This document shows, piece after piece, positions 32,217 to 39,672 of a stretch of 64,000 nucleotides of DNA. This stretch comes from Streptomyces sp. I6 (GTDB lineage: Bacteria > Actinomycetota > Actinomycetes > Streptomycetales > Streptomycetaceae), in NCBI GenBank assembly GCA_003725745.1, contig RHDP01000001.1, positions 4,596,501-4,660,500 of the forward strand, given 5' to 3'. The position numbers and the translations under genes were made by a program. Below the pieces are notes generated by a model. The model was not told the DNA's origin. It was given only the letters and a program-made list of their open reading frames with translations, and did not search any database. Each line of letters opens with the position of its first letter. The first letter of the stretch is position 1.

Positions 32217-35200
32217 ATGCAACAACTCCTACGCCAGTTGCGCTATTTGGGGCACTGGCATAGATCCGTCTCATTCGTCGCCTTCATGGCGATGATGATC
32301 ACGCTGATACCCGACGATCCCGCTGCCGCCGCCGGCCGCGGCGCGGATCTCGAAGACCTCAAGCGCGACCGCTCCGTCGCGGGCCGTGCGTTGACCAAGG
32401 AGCGCCGCGAGGCCAGGAACGCCGCGGCCAAGGCGTGGCAGGGGTCCGCCGCCAGGATTCCCTCCGGCGACTACCTCGTCCAGGTCACCGGCCGGCCGGG
32501 CACGAACACTCCGGAGAAGGCCGCCAAGCAGCGCCTCGGAGCCGCGAACGGCAGTGCGCTCGGCAAGGCCCCGGAGGCCCTCGCCAAGCTCCCCGTGACG
32601 CTTCGCCCGGCGCAGGACGCTCCCCGCTCCAGGGGTGCCCGCGCCAACGCCCCCAAGGCCGCGTCCGGTTCCGCCGCCCGTGTCCGCATCGAGGACGCCG
32701 CCACCGCCCGCAAGGCCGGTGTCGAGGGCGTGCTGTTCACCACGGCCCCGGCCGCAGCCCGGGACGGCACCGCCGGTGCCGCGTCCGGAGCCGTCCAGGT
32801 CGAGCTCGACTACTCGGCCTTCAAGGACACGTTCGGTGGCGACTGGGGATCCCGGCTCCGCCTCGTCCAGCTGCCCGCCTGTGCGCTGACGACCCCGCAG
32901 AAGGCCGAGTGCCGCACCCGCACCGAGCTGCGCGGCTCCAACGACCCGGCCGGTCACACCGTCGAGGCCACCGTCGACCTGGGCAAGGCACCCACACAGG
33001 GCTTCGCCGCCCGCAGCGCCGCGGCCGCCCCGATGGTCCTCGCCGCCACCGCGGCCGCGTCCGGACCCGGCGGCAGCCACGAGGCGACCTCGCTGTCCCC
33101 GTCCGGCTCCTGGATGGCCGGCAGTTCCTCCGGCGGCTTCTCGTGGACGTATCCGATCGAGGCGCCCGAGGTCCCGGGCGGTCCGCAGCCGGAGATCGAG
33201 CTCTCGTACTCCTCGCAGTCCGTCGACGGCCGTACCGCCTCCACCAACGCCCAGTCGTCGTGGATCGCCGAGGGCTGGGACTACGAGCCGGGATACATCG
33301 AGCGCAAGTACCGCTCCTGCTCCGACGACAAGGGCAAGGTCGACGGCAAGACCCCCAACAACACCGCCGACAACGGTGACCTGTGCTGGGGTTCCGACCA
33401 CGTCGTGATGTCGCTCGGAGGCAACACCACCGAGCTCGTGAAGGACGACGCCAACGGCAAGTGGCGGCCCGCCGACGACGACGGGACCAAGGTCGAGCAG
33501 AAGACCGGAGCCGTCAACGGCACCAAGGACGGCGAGTACTGGGTCGTCACCGGCACCGACGGGGTCAAGTACCACTTCGGCCTGAACAAGTTGCCGAACG
33601 CCACCACCCAGAGCACCAACTCCGCGCTGACCGTGCCGGTGTTCGGCAACCACCCGGGTGAGCCCTGCCATGCCACGGCGTTCATGGACTCCGACTGCAC
33701 CCAGGCCTACCGCTGGAACCTTGACTACGTCGTCGACCCGCTCGGCGACGCCATGACCCTGTGGTGGAACAAGCACACCAACTTCTACGGCCAGAACATG
33801 AAGGCCGACCAGCAGATCTCCTACGTGCGCTCCGCAGATCTGGCCCGCATCGACTACGGCCAGCGCTCGGACACCCTCTTCACCGCGCAGCCCGCCGGCC
33901 GGGTCTCCTTCACGGTCTCCGAGCGCTGCGTTACGAACGCGACGTTCGACTGCGCGGAGTCCAAGCGGACCACGGCCAACGCCAAGCACTGGCCGGACAC
34001 CCCACTCGACCAGGAGTGCAAGTCCGGTGCCCAGTGCACCGACAAGTTCTCCCCGACGTTCTGGTCCACCAAGCGCCTGACGAAGATCACCACTCAGGTG
34101 CTGGCCGGGACCACGCTGAAGAACGTCGACTCGTGGGCGCTGGAGAGCCGTTTCCCCGACACCGGTGACGGCACGTCCCCGGCCCTGTGGCTGGACTCCG
34201 TCACCCGCACCGGCCACGGCGCGGGCTCGACCGCGGCCATGCCGAAGGTCAGCTTCTCGGGTGTCCAGCTCGACAACCGCGTCGACGGCGTCGAGGGCCT
34301 GCCGCCCTTCTCCCGCCTGCGGATCAACGCGATCGACACCGAGACCGGTGGCCGCATCGGCGTGTCCTACTCGCCGCGCGACTGCCAGGTCCTGGCCCCG
34401 CGCCGCATGCCGGCCTCGCCCGAGACCAACACCATGCGCTGCTTCCCGCAGTACTGGACCCCCAAGGGGGCGCTGAGCCCGGTACAGGACTGGTTCCACA
34501 AGTACCTCGTCACCGAGGTGCGCGAGGAGGACCTGGTCACCGACAGCCCGGCCAAGGTCACCTCGTACGAGTTCATCGGCGGTGCCGCCTGGGCGTACGA
34601 CGAGAGCGAGTTCACCGAGAACAAGTACCGCACATGGTCCCAGTACCGGGGCTACGAGCGGGTGCGGACCCGCCTCGGCGCCGGTGACGACGTCAAGCAG
34701 CTCTCCGAGCACCGCTACTTCCGCGGAATGCACGGCGACAAGCTGCCCAGCGGCACCCGCACCTCCGTCATCGAGGACTCCCAGGGCGGCAGCGTCGACG
34801 ACCTGCCGCAGTACCAGGGCCAGCTGCGCGAGCAGATCACCTACGAGTCGGACGGCGGCGCCGTCGACTCCTCGACGCTCACCACCGCATGGTCGGTGAA
34901 GACGGCCACCCGCGCCCGTACCGGCACCACGCCGCTGGAGGCGTGGATGACCCGCCCGGAGACCGTCCAGACCCGTGAGCGGGTCAAGGGCGAGACCTGG
35001 CGCACGTCGACCGAGACCACCAAGTACGACAGCTACGGCCTGCCGTACCAGGTGGACGAGACGACGCCCGGCGGCAAGCGCATGTGTTCCACGACCACCT
35101 ACGCCCGCAACACCGCGGCGTACCTGCTGGAGTCGGAGTCCCGCGAGCTCACCACCCTCGGTGCCTGCGGCACCACGGGCGGCGAGGTCATCGAGGACAC

Positions 35201-38200
35201 GCGCACCCTCTACGACGGCCAGGCCTTCGGCGCGGCGCCGACGAAGGGCCTGGCGACCGAGGTCCAGGAGCTGAACGCCGAGGGCGACGGCTACATCACG
35301 ATCGACAAGACCGCGTACGACATCCACGGCCGCGAGACCGCGACCTGGGACGCCGAGAACCGCAAGACCTCGGTGAGCTACACGCCGGCGACCCTCGCCC
35401 GACCGACGAAGCAGGTCTCCACGGACCCGCTGGGCCACACCGAGACGACCGACTTCGACGATGTGCGCGGAATGCCGCTCGTGGAGACGGACGCCAACGG
35501 CAAGAAGGCCACGATGCAGTACGACCCGCTGGGCCGGCTGCTGAAGGTCTGGGAGATCGACCGCGACCCGGCCACCCAGACGCCGACCGCGGAGTACGAC
35601 TACACCGTGCGCCGTGACGGCCCGACGGTCGTCACCACGAAGACCCTCAAGGACAACGGCCAGTACGCCGTCGCCTACGAGATCCTCGACGGCCTGCTGC
35701 GCGAACGGCAGACCCAGGACGAGGCGGTCGGCGCGGGCCGCATCGTCAACGACACCTTCTACGACACCGCGGGCCGCAAGTGGAAGGAGAACGACGGGTA
35801 CTACAACGACCGCGAACCGGAAGCGAAACTCCTCCAGGTCGGCGACAACGAGGTCCCCTCACAGAACCGCACCACCTTCAACGGCCTGGGCGAGCCGGTC
35901 GCCGAGGTGACGTACCACCGGGGCGTGGAGAAGCTCCGGACGACGACGGAGCGGGACGGGGACGTCTCGACGACGATCCCGCCGAAGGGCGACACGGTCA
36001 CGGCGACGTTCGAGGACGCCGAGGGGCGCGCTTCCCGGCTCCGGGAGTTCACCAACGACGCGCGCACCACGTGGCGCGACACGGTGTACGAGTACGACCA
36101 CCTAGACAACGTCGTAAAGATCACTGCCCCCGGTGGTGCCGTCACTTCGTTCGAGTACGACGGGCGCGGGCGGCAGAAGTCCGTCACGGATCCCGACGGC
36201 GGCAAGACCACGTTCACGTACGACAATGGGGACAACGTCGTCTCGACGACCGATCCGCGGGGGCACACACTCGTCACGACCTATGACGCAGCGGGCCGGC
36301 CAACGACCCTGCGTGAGAACAGCGCCACTGGCCCTAAGCGTATGGAGTGGACCTACGACACCCTCGCCAAAGGCCGTCCGACGGCGTCCATACGCTACGA
36401 AGGAGGCAAGGAGTACCGCGACGAGGTCACGGCCTATGACGGGGCGTACCGTCCCACGGCCACCCAGACCGTCATTCCCCAGAGCGAGGAGGGCCTGAAG
36501 GGTACGTATACCTACAACTATGCCTATACGCCGACCGGAAACGTTGCCTGGGCCCAGTTGCCCGGCCTCGGTGGCCTCACCACCGAGCGAGTGGTATTCC
36601 GGTACAATTCCGACGACCTGCCGATCTCTATCGGCGGCGCGTCTACTTACCTCGGCGATGTTCAGTACTCGGCGTTCGGCGAGATCCTGCGCACCGAGGC
36701 CGGGCCGGCGGGCAAGAAGGTCTACGGGTCGTACATATACGACGAGTTCACCCGTCGCCTCGGTGTGTCTACCTTCGACCGCTCAGTTTCTCCGGGGCGC
36801 ATCAGCGAGACCCGGTACTCGTACGACGAGGCAGGCAACGTCACCAAGGTGTCAGATGCCCCTGGTGACGCAGCTGTTGATGCGGGGAAGACCGACACCC
36901 AGTGCTTCGTCTACGACAAGCTGCGGCAGATGACCTCGGCATGGACGGCGAAGAGTGAGGACTGCGCAGCAGGTCCCTCCAAGGAGACCGTCGGTGGACC
37001 GGACGCCTATTGGCAGTCGTTCAAGTTCGACGCCGCAGGCAATCGCACCGAACTCGTGGAGCACGACACGACGGGTGACACCGCCAAGGACGTCACGCGC
37101 ACATACTCCTACGGCAAGGCGGGTGTCGGGGGCCCCAACGCTCTTGCGGAGGTGAAGTCGGCCGGTCCGCTCGGCGAGCGCGTGAGCACTTTCGCCTACG
37201 ACAAGGCAGGCAACACGGTCAGGCGTCAGCGTGACGGAGTCGAACAGACTCTGGAATGGGATGTCGAAGGCAAGCTCAAGTCCGTGTCCGAGCCGGTCGG
37301 TGGCGGAGGCACACGGGTCACCAGGTATCTGTACGATGCGGCGGGCCAGCCACTCATCCGAACGGGTGCCGACGGTAGTAGGACGCTGTACCTGGGGGAC
37401 GCGGAACTGACCGTCAGCTCCGACCTGCAGCAGGTGAGCGCGGAGCGCTTCTACGTCCACCCTGACGGTTCCACAACGGTGCGTGCCACCGGTGGTGTAC
37501 GTCAGCTGATGCTGACAGACCACCACGGGACGTCGAACACTGTTGTGGACATGGTCGCTGTCGGCATGCCGGTCACGCGTCGCAAGTCGTTGCCCTTTGG
37601 TGAAGAACGTGGGGCCGCACCGGGAGAGTGGCCAGGGGACCGAGGGTTCGTCGGCGGCACCAAAGACAAGGACACCGGTCTGACGCGGCTCGGTGCCCGG
37701 GAGTACGACCCGTCGACAGGGCGATTCCTGTCGGTAGACCCGATGGTCGACTACTCGCAGCCGGCCACGATGAACCCATACGCCTACAGCAACAACGCAC
37801 CGGCGACGTTCTCCGACCCGGAGGGGCTGTTCTTCCCCATCCTGATCGGTATTGCGGCCCGCATTGCCATCCAGGCGGCCATTCGTGCGGCGGCTCGTCG
37901 AGCGGCGATGATCGCGGCGCGCAAGGCGGCTCAGGCGGCAGCTCGCCGGGCTGCGGCACTCGCGCGCAAGCGTGCCCTCGAGGCGGCCAAGCGCGCTGCA
38001 GCCAAACGTGCTCGGGCGGAAGCGAGAAAGAGGGCGGCCGCTCAGCGCGCCGCAGCACGGCGGGCTGCCCAGCGAGCCGCTGCCAAACGCGCTGCACAGC
38101 GCAGAGCTGCGGCTCAGGCTCGTCAGCGTGCCGCCCGCGCCGCTGCGAAGCGTGCCCAGGCAAGGCGGGCAGCGGCACGTAAGGCTGCTGCCCGGCCGAA

Positions 38201-38699
38201 ACCCAGAGCCAAGCCGCGGAGCCAGCCGAAGCCGCGGTCGAAGCCTTCCCAAGCCAAGAAGCCGGCACAGAAGGCCGCGCGGAAGGCGGCCGAGGAGGCA
38301 AAGGCTGAAGGCAAGGAACAGGCTCAGGAAGCCGTTCAGCAGAGGGTCGCGGAGTGGAGCGAGGGGCAGGAGGAGTCTGCGTCTGCCGCCCGCTACGCCC
38401 GTGATCTTGAGGGCCGGGATAGCAAGGGCAAGCATTCTGCCTATACTGGTGGTTTCGACCCGGACAATCCCGACCGTGTGTTCGTCGGTTGCTCGTCCAA
38501 TCCTGATGGATGCGCTGAGCGGGATGTCGAACGCCAAACAGGTAGGGGTCCGCACGACGTAGTCTTCACGAAGGCATTCGGGTGGAGGGCCAAGAAGTGG
38601 GTCGAAATTCCCATCTGCGTGAAATGTCAAGCCCGCTATAAGCGGAAGCAGTTCCCGCCGGACGCCATATACGACGAAGGAGGGGACTGGTCAAAGTGA
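32217..38699 (+). CDS. RHS repeat polymorphic toxin with deaminase-like C-terminal domain
   Basis: 2160 aa, unbroken. Residues 18-40 hold a signal/anchor segment (SVSFVAFMAMMITLIPDD). An N-terminal TcdB/SpvB-like region is followed by many YD repeats (YDPLGRLLK, YEYDHLDNVVKITAPGG, FTYDNGDNVVSTTDPRG) that build the RHS shell. The core ends with LGAREYDPSTGRFLSVDP and DPEGL at about 1867-1871. Next comes a very basic Ala/Arg/Lys-rich stretch of about 150 residues. The tip (about 2058-2160) has GCAERDVE (Cys2099, Glu2101) and PICVKC (Cys2134, Cys2137), the [HC]xE plus CxxC zinc pattern of nucleic-acid deaminases, closest in feel to YwqJ-like ones. ATG at 32217 follows GGGTGGGG. GC content falls from about 36.1 kb on. 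Confidence 0.85.
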   Translation: MQQLLRQLRYLGHWHRSVSFVAFMAMMITLIPDDPAAAAGRGADLEDLKRDRSVAGRALTKERREARNAAAKAWQGSAARIPSGDYLVQVTGRPGTNTPEKAAKQRLGAANGSALGKAPEALAKLPVTLRPAQDAPRSRGARANAPKAASGSAARVRIEDAATARKAGVEGVLFTTAPAAARDGTAGAASGAVQVELDYSAFKDTFGGDWGSRLRLVQLPACALTTPQKAECRTRTELRGSNDPAGHTVEATVDLGKAPTQGFAARSAAAAPMVLAATAAASGPGGSHEATSLSPSGSWMAGSSSGGFSWTYPIEAPEVPGGPQPEIELSYSSQSVDGRTASTNAQSSWIAEGWDYEPGYIERKYRSCSDDKGKVDGKTPNNTADNGDLCWGSDHVVMSLGGNTTELVKDDANGKWRPADDDGTKVEQKTGAVNGTKDGEYWVVTGTDGVKYHFGLNKLPNATTQSTNSALTVPVFGNHPGEPCHATAFMDSDCTQAYRWNLDYVVDPLGDAMTLWWNKHTNFYGQNMKADQQISYVRSADLARIDYGQRSDTLFTAQPAGRVSFTVSERCVTNATFDCAESKRTTANAKHWPDTPLDQECKSGAQCTDKFSPTFWSTKRLTKITTQVLAGTTLKNVDSWALESRFPDTGDGTSPALWLDSVTRTGHGAGSTAAMPKVSFSGVQLDNRVDGVEGLPPFSRLRINAIDTETGGRIGVSYSPRDCQVLAPRRMPASPETNTMRCFPQYWTPKGALSPVQDWFHKYLVTEVREEDLVTDSPAKVTSYEFIGGAAWAYDESEFTENKYRTWSQYRGYERVRTRLGAGDDVKQLSEHRYFRGMHGDKLPSGTRTSVIEDSQGGSVDDLPQYQGQLREQITYESDGGAVDSSTLTTAWSVKTATRARTGTTPLEAWMTRPETVQTRERVKGETWRTSTETTKYDSYGLPYQVDETTPGGKRMCSTTTYARNTAAYLLESESRELTTLGACGTTGGEVIEDTRTLYDGQAFGAAPTKGLATEVQELNAEGDGYITIDKTAYDIHGRETATWDAENRKTSVSYTPATLARPTKQVSTDPLGHTETTDFDDVRGMPLVETDANGKKATMQYDPLGRLLKVWEIDRDPATQTPTAEYDYTVRRDGPTVVTTKTLKDNGQYAVAYEILDGLLRERQTQDEAVGAGRIVNDTFYDTAGRKWKENDGYYNDREPEAKLLQVGDNEVPSQNRTTFNGLGEPVAEVTYHRGVEKLRTTTERDGDVSTTIPPKGDTVTATFEDAEGRASRLREFTNDARTTWRDTVYEYDHLDNVVKITAPGGAVTSFEYDGRGRQKSVTDPDGGKTTFTYDNGDNVVSTTDPRGHTLVTTYDAAGRPTTLRENSATGPKRMEWTYDTLAKGRPTASIRYEGGKEYRDEVTAYDGAYRPTATQTVIPQSEEGLKGTYTYNYAYTPTGNVAWAQLPGLGGLTTERVVFRYNSDDLPISIGGASTYLGDVQYSAFGEILRTEAGPAGKKVYGSYIYDEFTRRLGVSTFDRSVSPGRISETRYSYDEAGNVTKVSDAPGDAAVDAGKTDTQCFVYDKLRQMTSAWTAKSEDCAAGPSKETVGGPDAYWQSFKFDAAGNRTELVEHDTTGDTAKDVTRTYSYGKAGVGGPNALAEVKSAGPLGERVSTFAYDKAGNTVRRQRDGVEQTLEWDVEGKLKSVSEPVGGGGTRVTRYLYDAAGQPLIRTGADGSRTLYLGDAELTVSSDLQQVSAERFYVHPDGSTTVRATGGVRQLMLTDHHGTSNTVVDMVAVGMPVTRRKSLPFGEERGAAPGEWPGDRGFVGGTKDKDTGLTRLGAREYDPSTGRFLSVDPMVDYSQPATMNPYAYSNNAPATFSDPEGLFFPILIGIAARIAIQAAIRAAARRAAMIAARKAAQAAARRAAALARKRALEAAKRAAAKRARAEARKRAAAQRAAARRAAQRAAAKRAAQRRAAAQARQRAARAAAKRAQARRAAARKAAARPKPRAKPRSQPKPRSKPSQAKKPAQKAARKAAEEAKAEGKEQAQEAVQQRVAEWSEGQEESASAARYARDLEGRDSKGKHSAYTGGFDPDNPDRVFVGCSSNPDGCAERDVERQTGRGPHDVVFTKAFGWRAKKWVEIPICVKCQARYKRKQFPPDAIYDEGGDWSK

Positions 38700-38724: not shown

Positions 38725-39216
38725 GTGAGCAAGAGCCTGGCCGAAATCGAAATCGGGCGCTTGGATTGGACTGCGTTCCGCACTCTGGGTGATCGGACCG
38801 AGAAGGTCCCCGGAGCCCTGCTGCGGCTGTTTGCCGCCGGCACGGAGGACGAGGCGATGGCTGCCTACTGGGAGCTGGAGAACGTCGTCGTCGTGCAGGG
38901 GCAGCTCTACAGTGCAGCATTGCCGACTGTGCATGTTCTGCTTGCGGCGTTGCTCGACGAGCTCTCGGCCGACGCCCGTGACCTTGTGCTCGAACTGCTC
39001 TTCCAGATCGTGTCAGGTGAGGCGGACGAGGAGGAGAGGGGCATGGGAAACTCAGCTCTGGGCGATCTGTGTCGAGATGCGGCTCGTGAGGGCCTCTGGC
39101 TCGTCTACCGGGAGCTTGGAACCCGGCGCCGGGAGACAGCCGAGTCGATTCTGGAGCGCATCGAAGGCGACGAAGCCAGGCTCACGGCCTTCCTCGCGAG
39201 CCTGCGAGGAAAGTAG
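38725..39216 (+). CDS. Putative immunity protein of the RHS toxin
   Basis: 163 aa, all helical, acidic, HEAT-like: FRTLGDRTEKVPGALLRLF, LYSAALPTVHVLLAALLDEL, ARDLVLELLFQIVSGEADEE. It starts at GTG 38725, 25 bp after the toxin stop codon, which is the standard position for the cognate immunity gene of a polymorphic toxin. Codon use is less GC-rich than in the core genes, like the end of the toxin gene. The immunity role is inferred from position and size, not from a recognised domain. Confidence 0.7.
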   Translation: MSKSLAEIEIGRLDWTAFRTLGDRTEKVPGALLRLFAAGTEDEAMAAYWELENVVVVQGQLYSAALPTVHVLLAALLDELSADARDLVLELLFQIVSGEADEEERGMGNSALGDLCRDAAREGLWLVYRELGTRRRETAESILERIEGDEARLTAFLASLRGK

Positions 39217-39424: not shown

Positions 39425-39672
39425 TCAAGTTGTCGCTGCGGCGCCGATGAGGAAGAGGACGCGCTCACCTACGCGTACTGGCAGGAGTGGCGGGACGCGA
39501 ATCCCGGGTGGAACCCGTCGAGTTCGACCACGTGGTGGGATACAAGGTGCCGCTGAGCCTCGGTGGGGCGGACGATGTGGCGAACCTGGAGCTCACCGGG
39601 CGCCGGGGGTACGTCGAGCTGTGGGCACGGCATGCCCTCGTCTCCGCCACACCGCGCCCGTTCGTACCATGA
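39425..39672 (+). pseudogene. Orphan HNH-like toxin-tip fragment (one frameshift)
   Basis: Two frames joined at about 39514 (CCC run) read CRCGADEEDALTYAYWQEWRDANPGWNP and then VEFDHVVGYKVPLSLGGADDVANLEL, ending RPFVP. The DHVV...PLSLGG..DVANL pattern is that of HNH-type nucleases (compare D-H-x-x-P-L-x-x-G-G-x-x-x-x-x-N-L). There is no start codon with a ribosome site. Its place directly after an RHS toxin/immunity pair suggests a displaced, silent C-terminal tip. Confidence 0.45.

What the first reader, a model, noticed from the sequence alone, without database searches (positions are those of the whole stretch)
32217..38699. RHS toxin with deaminase-like tip carrying CAE and CxxC zinc motifs
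The last 100 residues hold Cys2099-Ala-Glu2101 and Cys2134-x-x-Cys2137, the [HC]xE/CxxC arrangement of zinc deaminases used as DNA- or RNA-editing toxins. The remaining tip sequence is not one I can match confidently, so its substrate (DNA, RNA or nucleotide) is open. A new editing deaminase would be of wide interest.
Basis: partly seen in the sequence, partly recalled or inferred. Interest (0 to 1): 0.75.

Follow-up and report, generated by a model that had tools for sequence, protein, structure and literature searches.

The report
RHS toxin with uncatalogued deaminase tip
A Streptomyces bacterium encodes a large toxin whose tip is predicted to be a small zinc deaminase that the protein-family libraries searched do not recognise, paired with its own antidote gene; it probably poisons rivals by altering the bases of their nucleic acids or nucleotides.

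The parts
32217..38699 (+). Whole RHS polymorphic toxin, 2160 aa; by eye a hydrophobic, signal-peptide-like stretch at residues about 17-40
   Evidence: PF05593 RHS_repeat E 7.1e-26, 7 stretches; signal-like stretch read by eye only
37593..37829 (+). Rhs-associated core, residues 1793-1871, ending in a SDPEGL-type sequence of the kind where Rhs proteins cut off their tip
   Evidence: TIGR03696 E 3.1e-16; cleavage role recalled from Rhs biology, not tested
37842..38321 (+). Ala/Arg/Lys-rich linker, residues 1876-2035, net charge +45
   Evidence: the same kind of linker sits before a different tip in L109, so it belongs to the carrier
38334..38696 (+). Deaminase-like toxin tip, residues 2040-2160
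   Evidence: alignment A4, model mb98d80635072, fold matches
38511..38519 (+). Cys2099-Ala-Glu2101: inferred zinc ligand and catalytic glutamate
   Evidence: invariant in 21 of 21 rows of A4; start of helix 61-69 of the model
38616..38627 (+). Cys2134-x-x-Cys2137: inferred two further zinc ligands
   Evidence: invariant in 21 of 21 rows of A4; start of helix 96-101 of the model
38725..39216 (+). Cognate immunity gene (inferred), 163 aa, GTG start, acidic (pI 4.6)
   Evidence: homologous ORF after the tip in 21 of 21 loci with both motifs, BLASTP E 3e-83 to 6e-4 among these ORFs only; pI

Best explanation
The tip is a zinc-dependent deaminase domain of a new sequence clade of polymorphic (Rhs) toxins. 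Shown by computation: a conserved CAE/CxxC module at the C-terminal end of RHS proteins, a predicted deaminase core, exchange of carriers, and a co-inherited downstream gene family. Inferred: the toxin is exported and sheltered in the Rhs shell; the tip is released near the SDPEGL sequence and enters a rival; Cys2099, Cys2134 and Cys2137 hold zinc and Glu2101 shuttles protons while zinc-bound water removes an amino group, most likely from cytosine in DNA or RNA (about 0.65 for a nucleic acid, about 0.25 for a free nucleoside or nucleotide, the rest for something else). The 163-aa neighbour protects the producer by covering the tip.
Confidence: 0.8

Rival explanations
1. The tip deaminates free cytidine, a nucleotide or another small molecule rather than nucleic acid, killing by draining or corrupting a nucleotide pool.
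For: The closest solved folds are small-molecule deaminases (blasticidin S deaminase, cytidine deaminase) rather than DddA or APOBEC; the CxE first motif is, as recalled, that of cytidine deaminases; most tips are not basic.
Against: Three deaminase toxins characterised in PMC7901873 (DddA, SsdA, a BaDTF3 member) change DNA (passages). Fold resemblance does not tell substrate, and solved toxin deaminases are few (DddA is the only one I saw in the lists).
Confidence: 0.25
2. The tip is a divergent member of an already named deaminase-toxin family (for example YwqJ-like, which has CxE and CxxC too) that present profiles miss.
For: The four YwqJ rows printed, from relatives of the window's genome, read CPE ... 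PPCxxC, similar in plan by eye; profile-profile comparison failed even between known families, so it cannot exclude this.
Against: PF14431, PF14428, PF14440, PF14427, PF14424 and PF00383 are not among the six families reported for 21 members at E up to 10, HMMER filters on; the neighbour gene matches no immunity profile.
Confidence: 0.25
3. The tip is a zinc-binding structural domain or a nuclease with a deaminase-like zinc site, not a deaminase.
For: Foldseek E-values are above 0.04; the terminal strands are reduced; one of 21 rows matched a zinc-ribbon profile at E 0.025.
Against: The invariant Glu beside the first Cys, and both motifs at helix starts, are what a deaminase needs; fold lists are dominated by deaminases for two models.
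Confidence: 0.12
4. The tip is a decayed or inactive module.
For: Degraded relatives exist: L004 and L007 carry stop codons in the matched stretch.
Against: The window copy is an open frame of 2160 aa with all motif residues and an open downstream gene.
Confidence: 0.05

Closest known systems
DddA / SCP1.201-like deaminase toxins (BaDTF1; PF14428)
   Same: C-terminal deaminase tip of a polymorphic toxin with its own immunity gene; CxxC-type second motif (recalled); deaminase fold (6u08 and 8e5d appear)
   Different: First motif CAE, against HxE in the four DddA-like rows printed; no PF14428 match; reduced end after CxxC
YwqJ-like deaminases (PF14431)
   Same: CxE and CxxC, present in the window's genus
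   Different: No PF14431 match; YwqJ rows, taken with up to 20 flanking residues a side, are basic (median pI 10.3 of 20), the tips are not (5.6 of 21); the 2012 survey lists Imm6 and SUKH for YwqJ (passages of PMC3482391), while the neighbour here matches no immunity profile
Blasticidin S deaminase and cytidine deaminase
   Different: About 14% identity in the structural alignment; no PF00383 match; sits on a toxin carrier with an immunity gene; reduced end after CxxC
WD0512-like deaminase toxins of Wolbachia
   Same: CxE and CxxC in an RHS-bearing toxin (passages of PMC3482391)
   Different: Described there as Helix-4 clade, without immunity gene, followed by a latrotoxin-type domain; not compared by sequence here

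Membership tests
Zinc deaminase superfamily (cytidine deaminase-like fold) | [HC]xE and CxxC zinc motifs, conserved | tested here: met
   21 of 21 rows of A4; 21 of 25 distinct non-self loci (L017 has CxxxC; L004 and L007 degraded; L006 no motif found)
Zinc deaminase superfamily (cytidine deaminase-like fold) | helix-strand-strand-helix-strand-helix core with the motifs at the starts of helices 2 and 3 | tested here: met
   secondary structure of two predicted models and their deaminase matches
Zinc deaminase superfamily (cytidine deaminase-like fold) | five-strand sheet including the strands after helix 3 | tested here: inconclusive
Zinc deaminase superfamily (cytidine deaminase-like fold) | hydrolytic deamination of a base, nucleoside or related substrate | not testable with these tools
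   needs an assay
Named deaminase families in Pfam (DddA-like, YwqJ, XOO_2897, Pput2613, Toxin-deaminase, PF00383) | match to the family profile | tested here: not met
   none of these among the six families reported for 21 members at E up to 10, HMMER filters on
Named deaminase families in Pfam (DddA-like, YwqJ, XOO_2897, PF00383) | profile-profile similarity | tested here: inconclusive
   no significant score, but known families failed against each other as well
Polymorphic (Rhs) toxin system | RHS carrier with variable C-terminal tip | tested here: met
   RHS repeats and core; tip on RHS and RHS-HINT carriers (6 and 3 of 8 scanned); carrier end with another tip in L109
Polymorphic (Rhs) toxin system | cognate immunity gene directly downstream | tested here: met
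   homologous downstream ORF in 21 of 21 loci with both motifs; protection itself not tested

The most novel reading that the evidence does not exclude
A new clade of minimal editing deaminases: about 90 to 120 residues carry CAE and CxxC, lack most of the usual strands after helix 3, and deaminate DNA or RNA in rival cells, held in check by an immunity family without a convincing library match. If so it would be among the smaller nucleic-acid deaminases and a new starting point for base-editing tools.
Probability: 0.35. Interest if true: 0.75.

Novelty: new variant of a known kind. Interest (0 to 1): 0.52.

Why it matters
Deaminase toxins have become tools: DddA is used for CRISPR-free mitochondrial base editing, and SsdA is being turned into compact editors (starts of abstracts seen). 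A clade that Pfam and NCBIfam do not recognise would be missed by profile-driven mining for such enzymes; in the one annotated record seen, the plasmid copy, it is called an RHS protein followed by a hypothetical protein. It also adds a toxin-antidote pair to the known stock and raises the question of how few strands a deaminase needs.

Tried and rejected
Direct look-ups of the tip (Pfam, NCBIfam, PADLOC, PDB sequences) gave no deaminase. Viral sources: no relative in viral contigs or phages. Plasmids: one record, Streptomyces sp. NBC_00080; none for the Variovorax tip. Profile-profile comparison was uninformative: known families did not detect each other, and a shuffled control beat the real tip against PF00383; the lines for shuffle 2 repeat an older output file and are void. 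It used 20 of 20 fetched YwqJ loci, 7 of 7 DddA-like, 14 of 20 XOO_2897 and 14 of 30 PF00383. PF14427 and PF14424 searches in 149 genomes each gave one match below cut-off and none; the latter rang nowhere, so it shows no absence; no alignments of those families were made. MafB19, DYW, Bd3614 and other clades were not fetched. Foldseek against viral models gave nothing strong (best E 0.096). Charge of the tip was considered as a guide to substrate and rejected, since DddA-like rows overlap (median pI 5.6 both). A role of the basic linker in the toxin itself was rejected, since other carriers lack it (L022, L029) and another tip has it.

Full report
Observation. The window holds one open frame at 32217-38699 of 2160 aa, with RHS repeats (PF05593, E 7.1e-26) and the Rhs-associated core at residues 1793-1871 (TIGR03696, E 3.1e-16). 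The genome is most likely a Streptomyces: a 'same genus' genome, G062, has the tip on a contig of the same length (128,871) as the record of Streptomyces sp. yr375.

Chance and conservation. A [HC]xE-x20-60-CxxC pattern appears in 120 of 20,000 shuffles of the tip. Relatives were sought in four sets of genomes, own genome counted each time: 7 of 199 relatives, 2 of 396 of the phylum, 10 of 392 of the genus and, with a profile, 5 of 296 of the class; and in genome contigs, where 12 of 119 candidate stretches encode a relative: Streptomyces (5), Microtetraspora, Planomonospora, Thermocatellispora, Nonomuraea, Actinocatenispora, Luteimicrobium and Variovorax. Both motifs are intact in 21. The other four: L004 and L007 are partial with stop codons, L006 is a weak match without the motif, and L017 has CAE but CxxxC. 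L008 (plasmid) has both motifs and is in A1 but not in A4, because the structure tool does not accept it. In A4 (window plus 20) the only invariant columns are C60, A61, E62, A81, C95 and C98. The tip ends 21 to 28 residues after CxxC in all 21 rows, so the short end belongs to the family and is not damage in this copy. Some rows lie in short open frames (L009 113 aa, L005 147 aa, L028 426 aa, L023 504 aa), so not every carrier gene is whole as read.

Profile comparison. Against alignments made here of YwqJ, DddA-like, XOO_2897 and PF00383 domains, hhalign found nothing significant; the best alignment to PF00383 rows does put CAE on HAE and CxxC on CxxC, but at E 0.39, and a column-shuffled control reached 0.052. 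The known families did not find each other, so the test has no power.

Partner gene. The 163-aa ORF at 38725-39216 has homologues after the tip in all 21 loci with intact motifs, down to about 25% identity (BLASTP among these ORFs only, E 3e-83 to 6e-4). They are acidic, pI 4.3 to 5.1 over 22 with the window. The window protein matches nothing in Pfam at E 10 or in PADLOC; among 13 members the best Pfam hits are DUF5954 at E 0.015 and HEAT repeats at 0.017 (2 members), and NCBIfam and PDB sequences give nothing convincing. Such faithful pairing over such divergence is the signature of toxin and immunity. The plasmid copy is annotated as an RHS protein followed by a hypothetical protein.

Carriers. 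In 8 relatives scanned with Pfam, 6 have RHS repeats and 3 a pretoxin HINT domain whose end abuts the tip; one (L028) has no match in the frame given. Conversely, the window's own carrier end and its Ala/Arg/Lys-rich linker (net +45) recur in L109, the only other match in 61 genomes (89% identity over 71 aa), in front of a HINT-like stretch and a different tip, by eye. Tip and carrier are thus exchanged independently.

Mechanism. Inferred from the kind of system: the RHS shell keeps the tip harmless, the tip is freed near SDPEGL (or by HINT in other carriers), enters a neighbouring cell, and its zinc-water, held by three Cys and activated by Glu2101, removes an amino group. Deaminase toxins characterised so far include mutagenic DNA deaminases (DddA, SsdA and a Pput_2613-like toxin; passages of PMC7901873). 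The nearest folds, however, are small-molecule deaminases. Charge does not decide it: the tips have median pI 5.6, DddA-like rows 5.6, YwqJ rows 10.3, the latter two with flanking residues. I hold a nucleic acid substrate at about 0.65.

What is known. The 2012 survey of polymorphic toxins lists nine earlier deaminase families plus sce3516-like (mostly HxE, SUKH immunity) and WD0512-like (CxE, no immunity gene), and immunity families Imm1-6, Imm10, Imm18, SUKH and ankyrin for deaminases; HEAT-type immunity is listed there for other toxins (passages of PMC3482391). The 2011 deaminase-fold survey by Iyer and colleagues, the main reference, was not held, so a clade drawn there without a Pfam model cannot be excluded. 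Six searches of the held library (listings and starts of abstracts seen) showed no paper that I could recognise as describing this clade; that is no proof that none exists. Passages of PMC9990079 and PMC11754093 were read; the latter mines with two APOBEC profiles, which by inference would not reach this clade.

Verdict. It is a new clade within a known kind, perhaps with a reduced core. Activity and substrate are the open points.

Noticed in passing
window 37842-38321: A 160-residue Ala/Arg/Lys-rich linker (69 Ala, 33 Arg, 18 Lys, net +45) lies between Rhs core and tip; it recurs with another tip in L109, so it belongs to this carrier type. Its role is unknown.
   Followed up: partly
window 39487-39672 (+): A 61-aa open stretch downstream of the immunity gene matches the C-terminal Tdi1-type immunity profile PF08906 below cut-off (E 3.6e-5, 24.0 of 27.4 bits): perhaps the remnant of an older immunity gene.
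   Followed up: partly
own genome G000 C1:2592669-2592971 (-) and C1:2595857-2596237 (+): An XOO_2897-type and a YwqJ-type deaminase domain lie about 3 kb apart on opposite strands; by eye the same pairing recurs in other genomes (for example G031, G044, G047). The families occur in 54 of 81 and 61 of 100 genomes searched, steadier than exchanged toxin tips usually are.
   Followed up: no
L109 1501-3213: A closely similar RHS carrier end (89% over 71 aa) and linker bearing a HINT-like stretch and a different C-terminal tip, a direct view of tip exchange.
   Followed up: partly
L017 1438-1851: A 138-aa open frame matching the tip profile (E 1.2e-11) with CAE but CxxxC instead of CxxC, close to a contig end: possibly a decayed or altered relative.
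   Followed up: no
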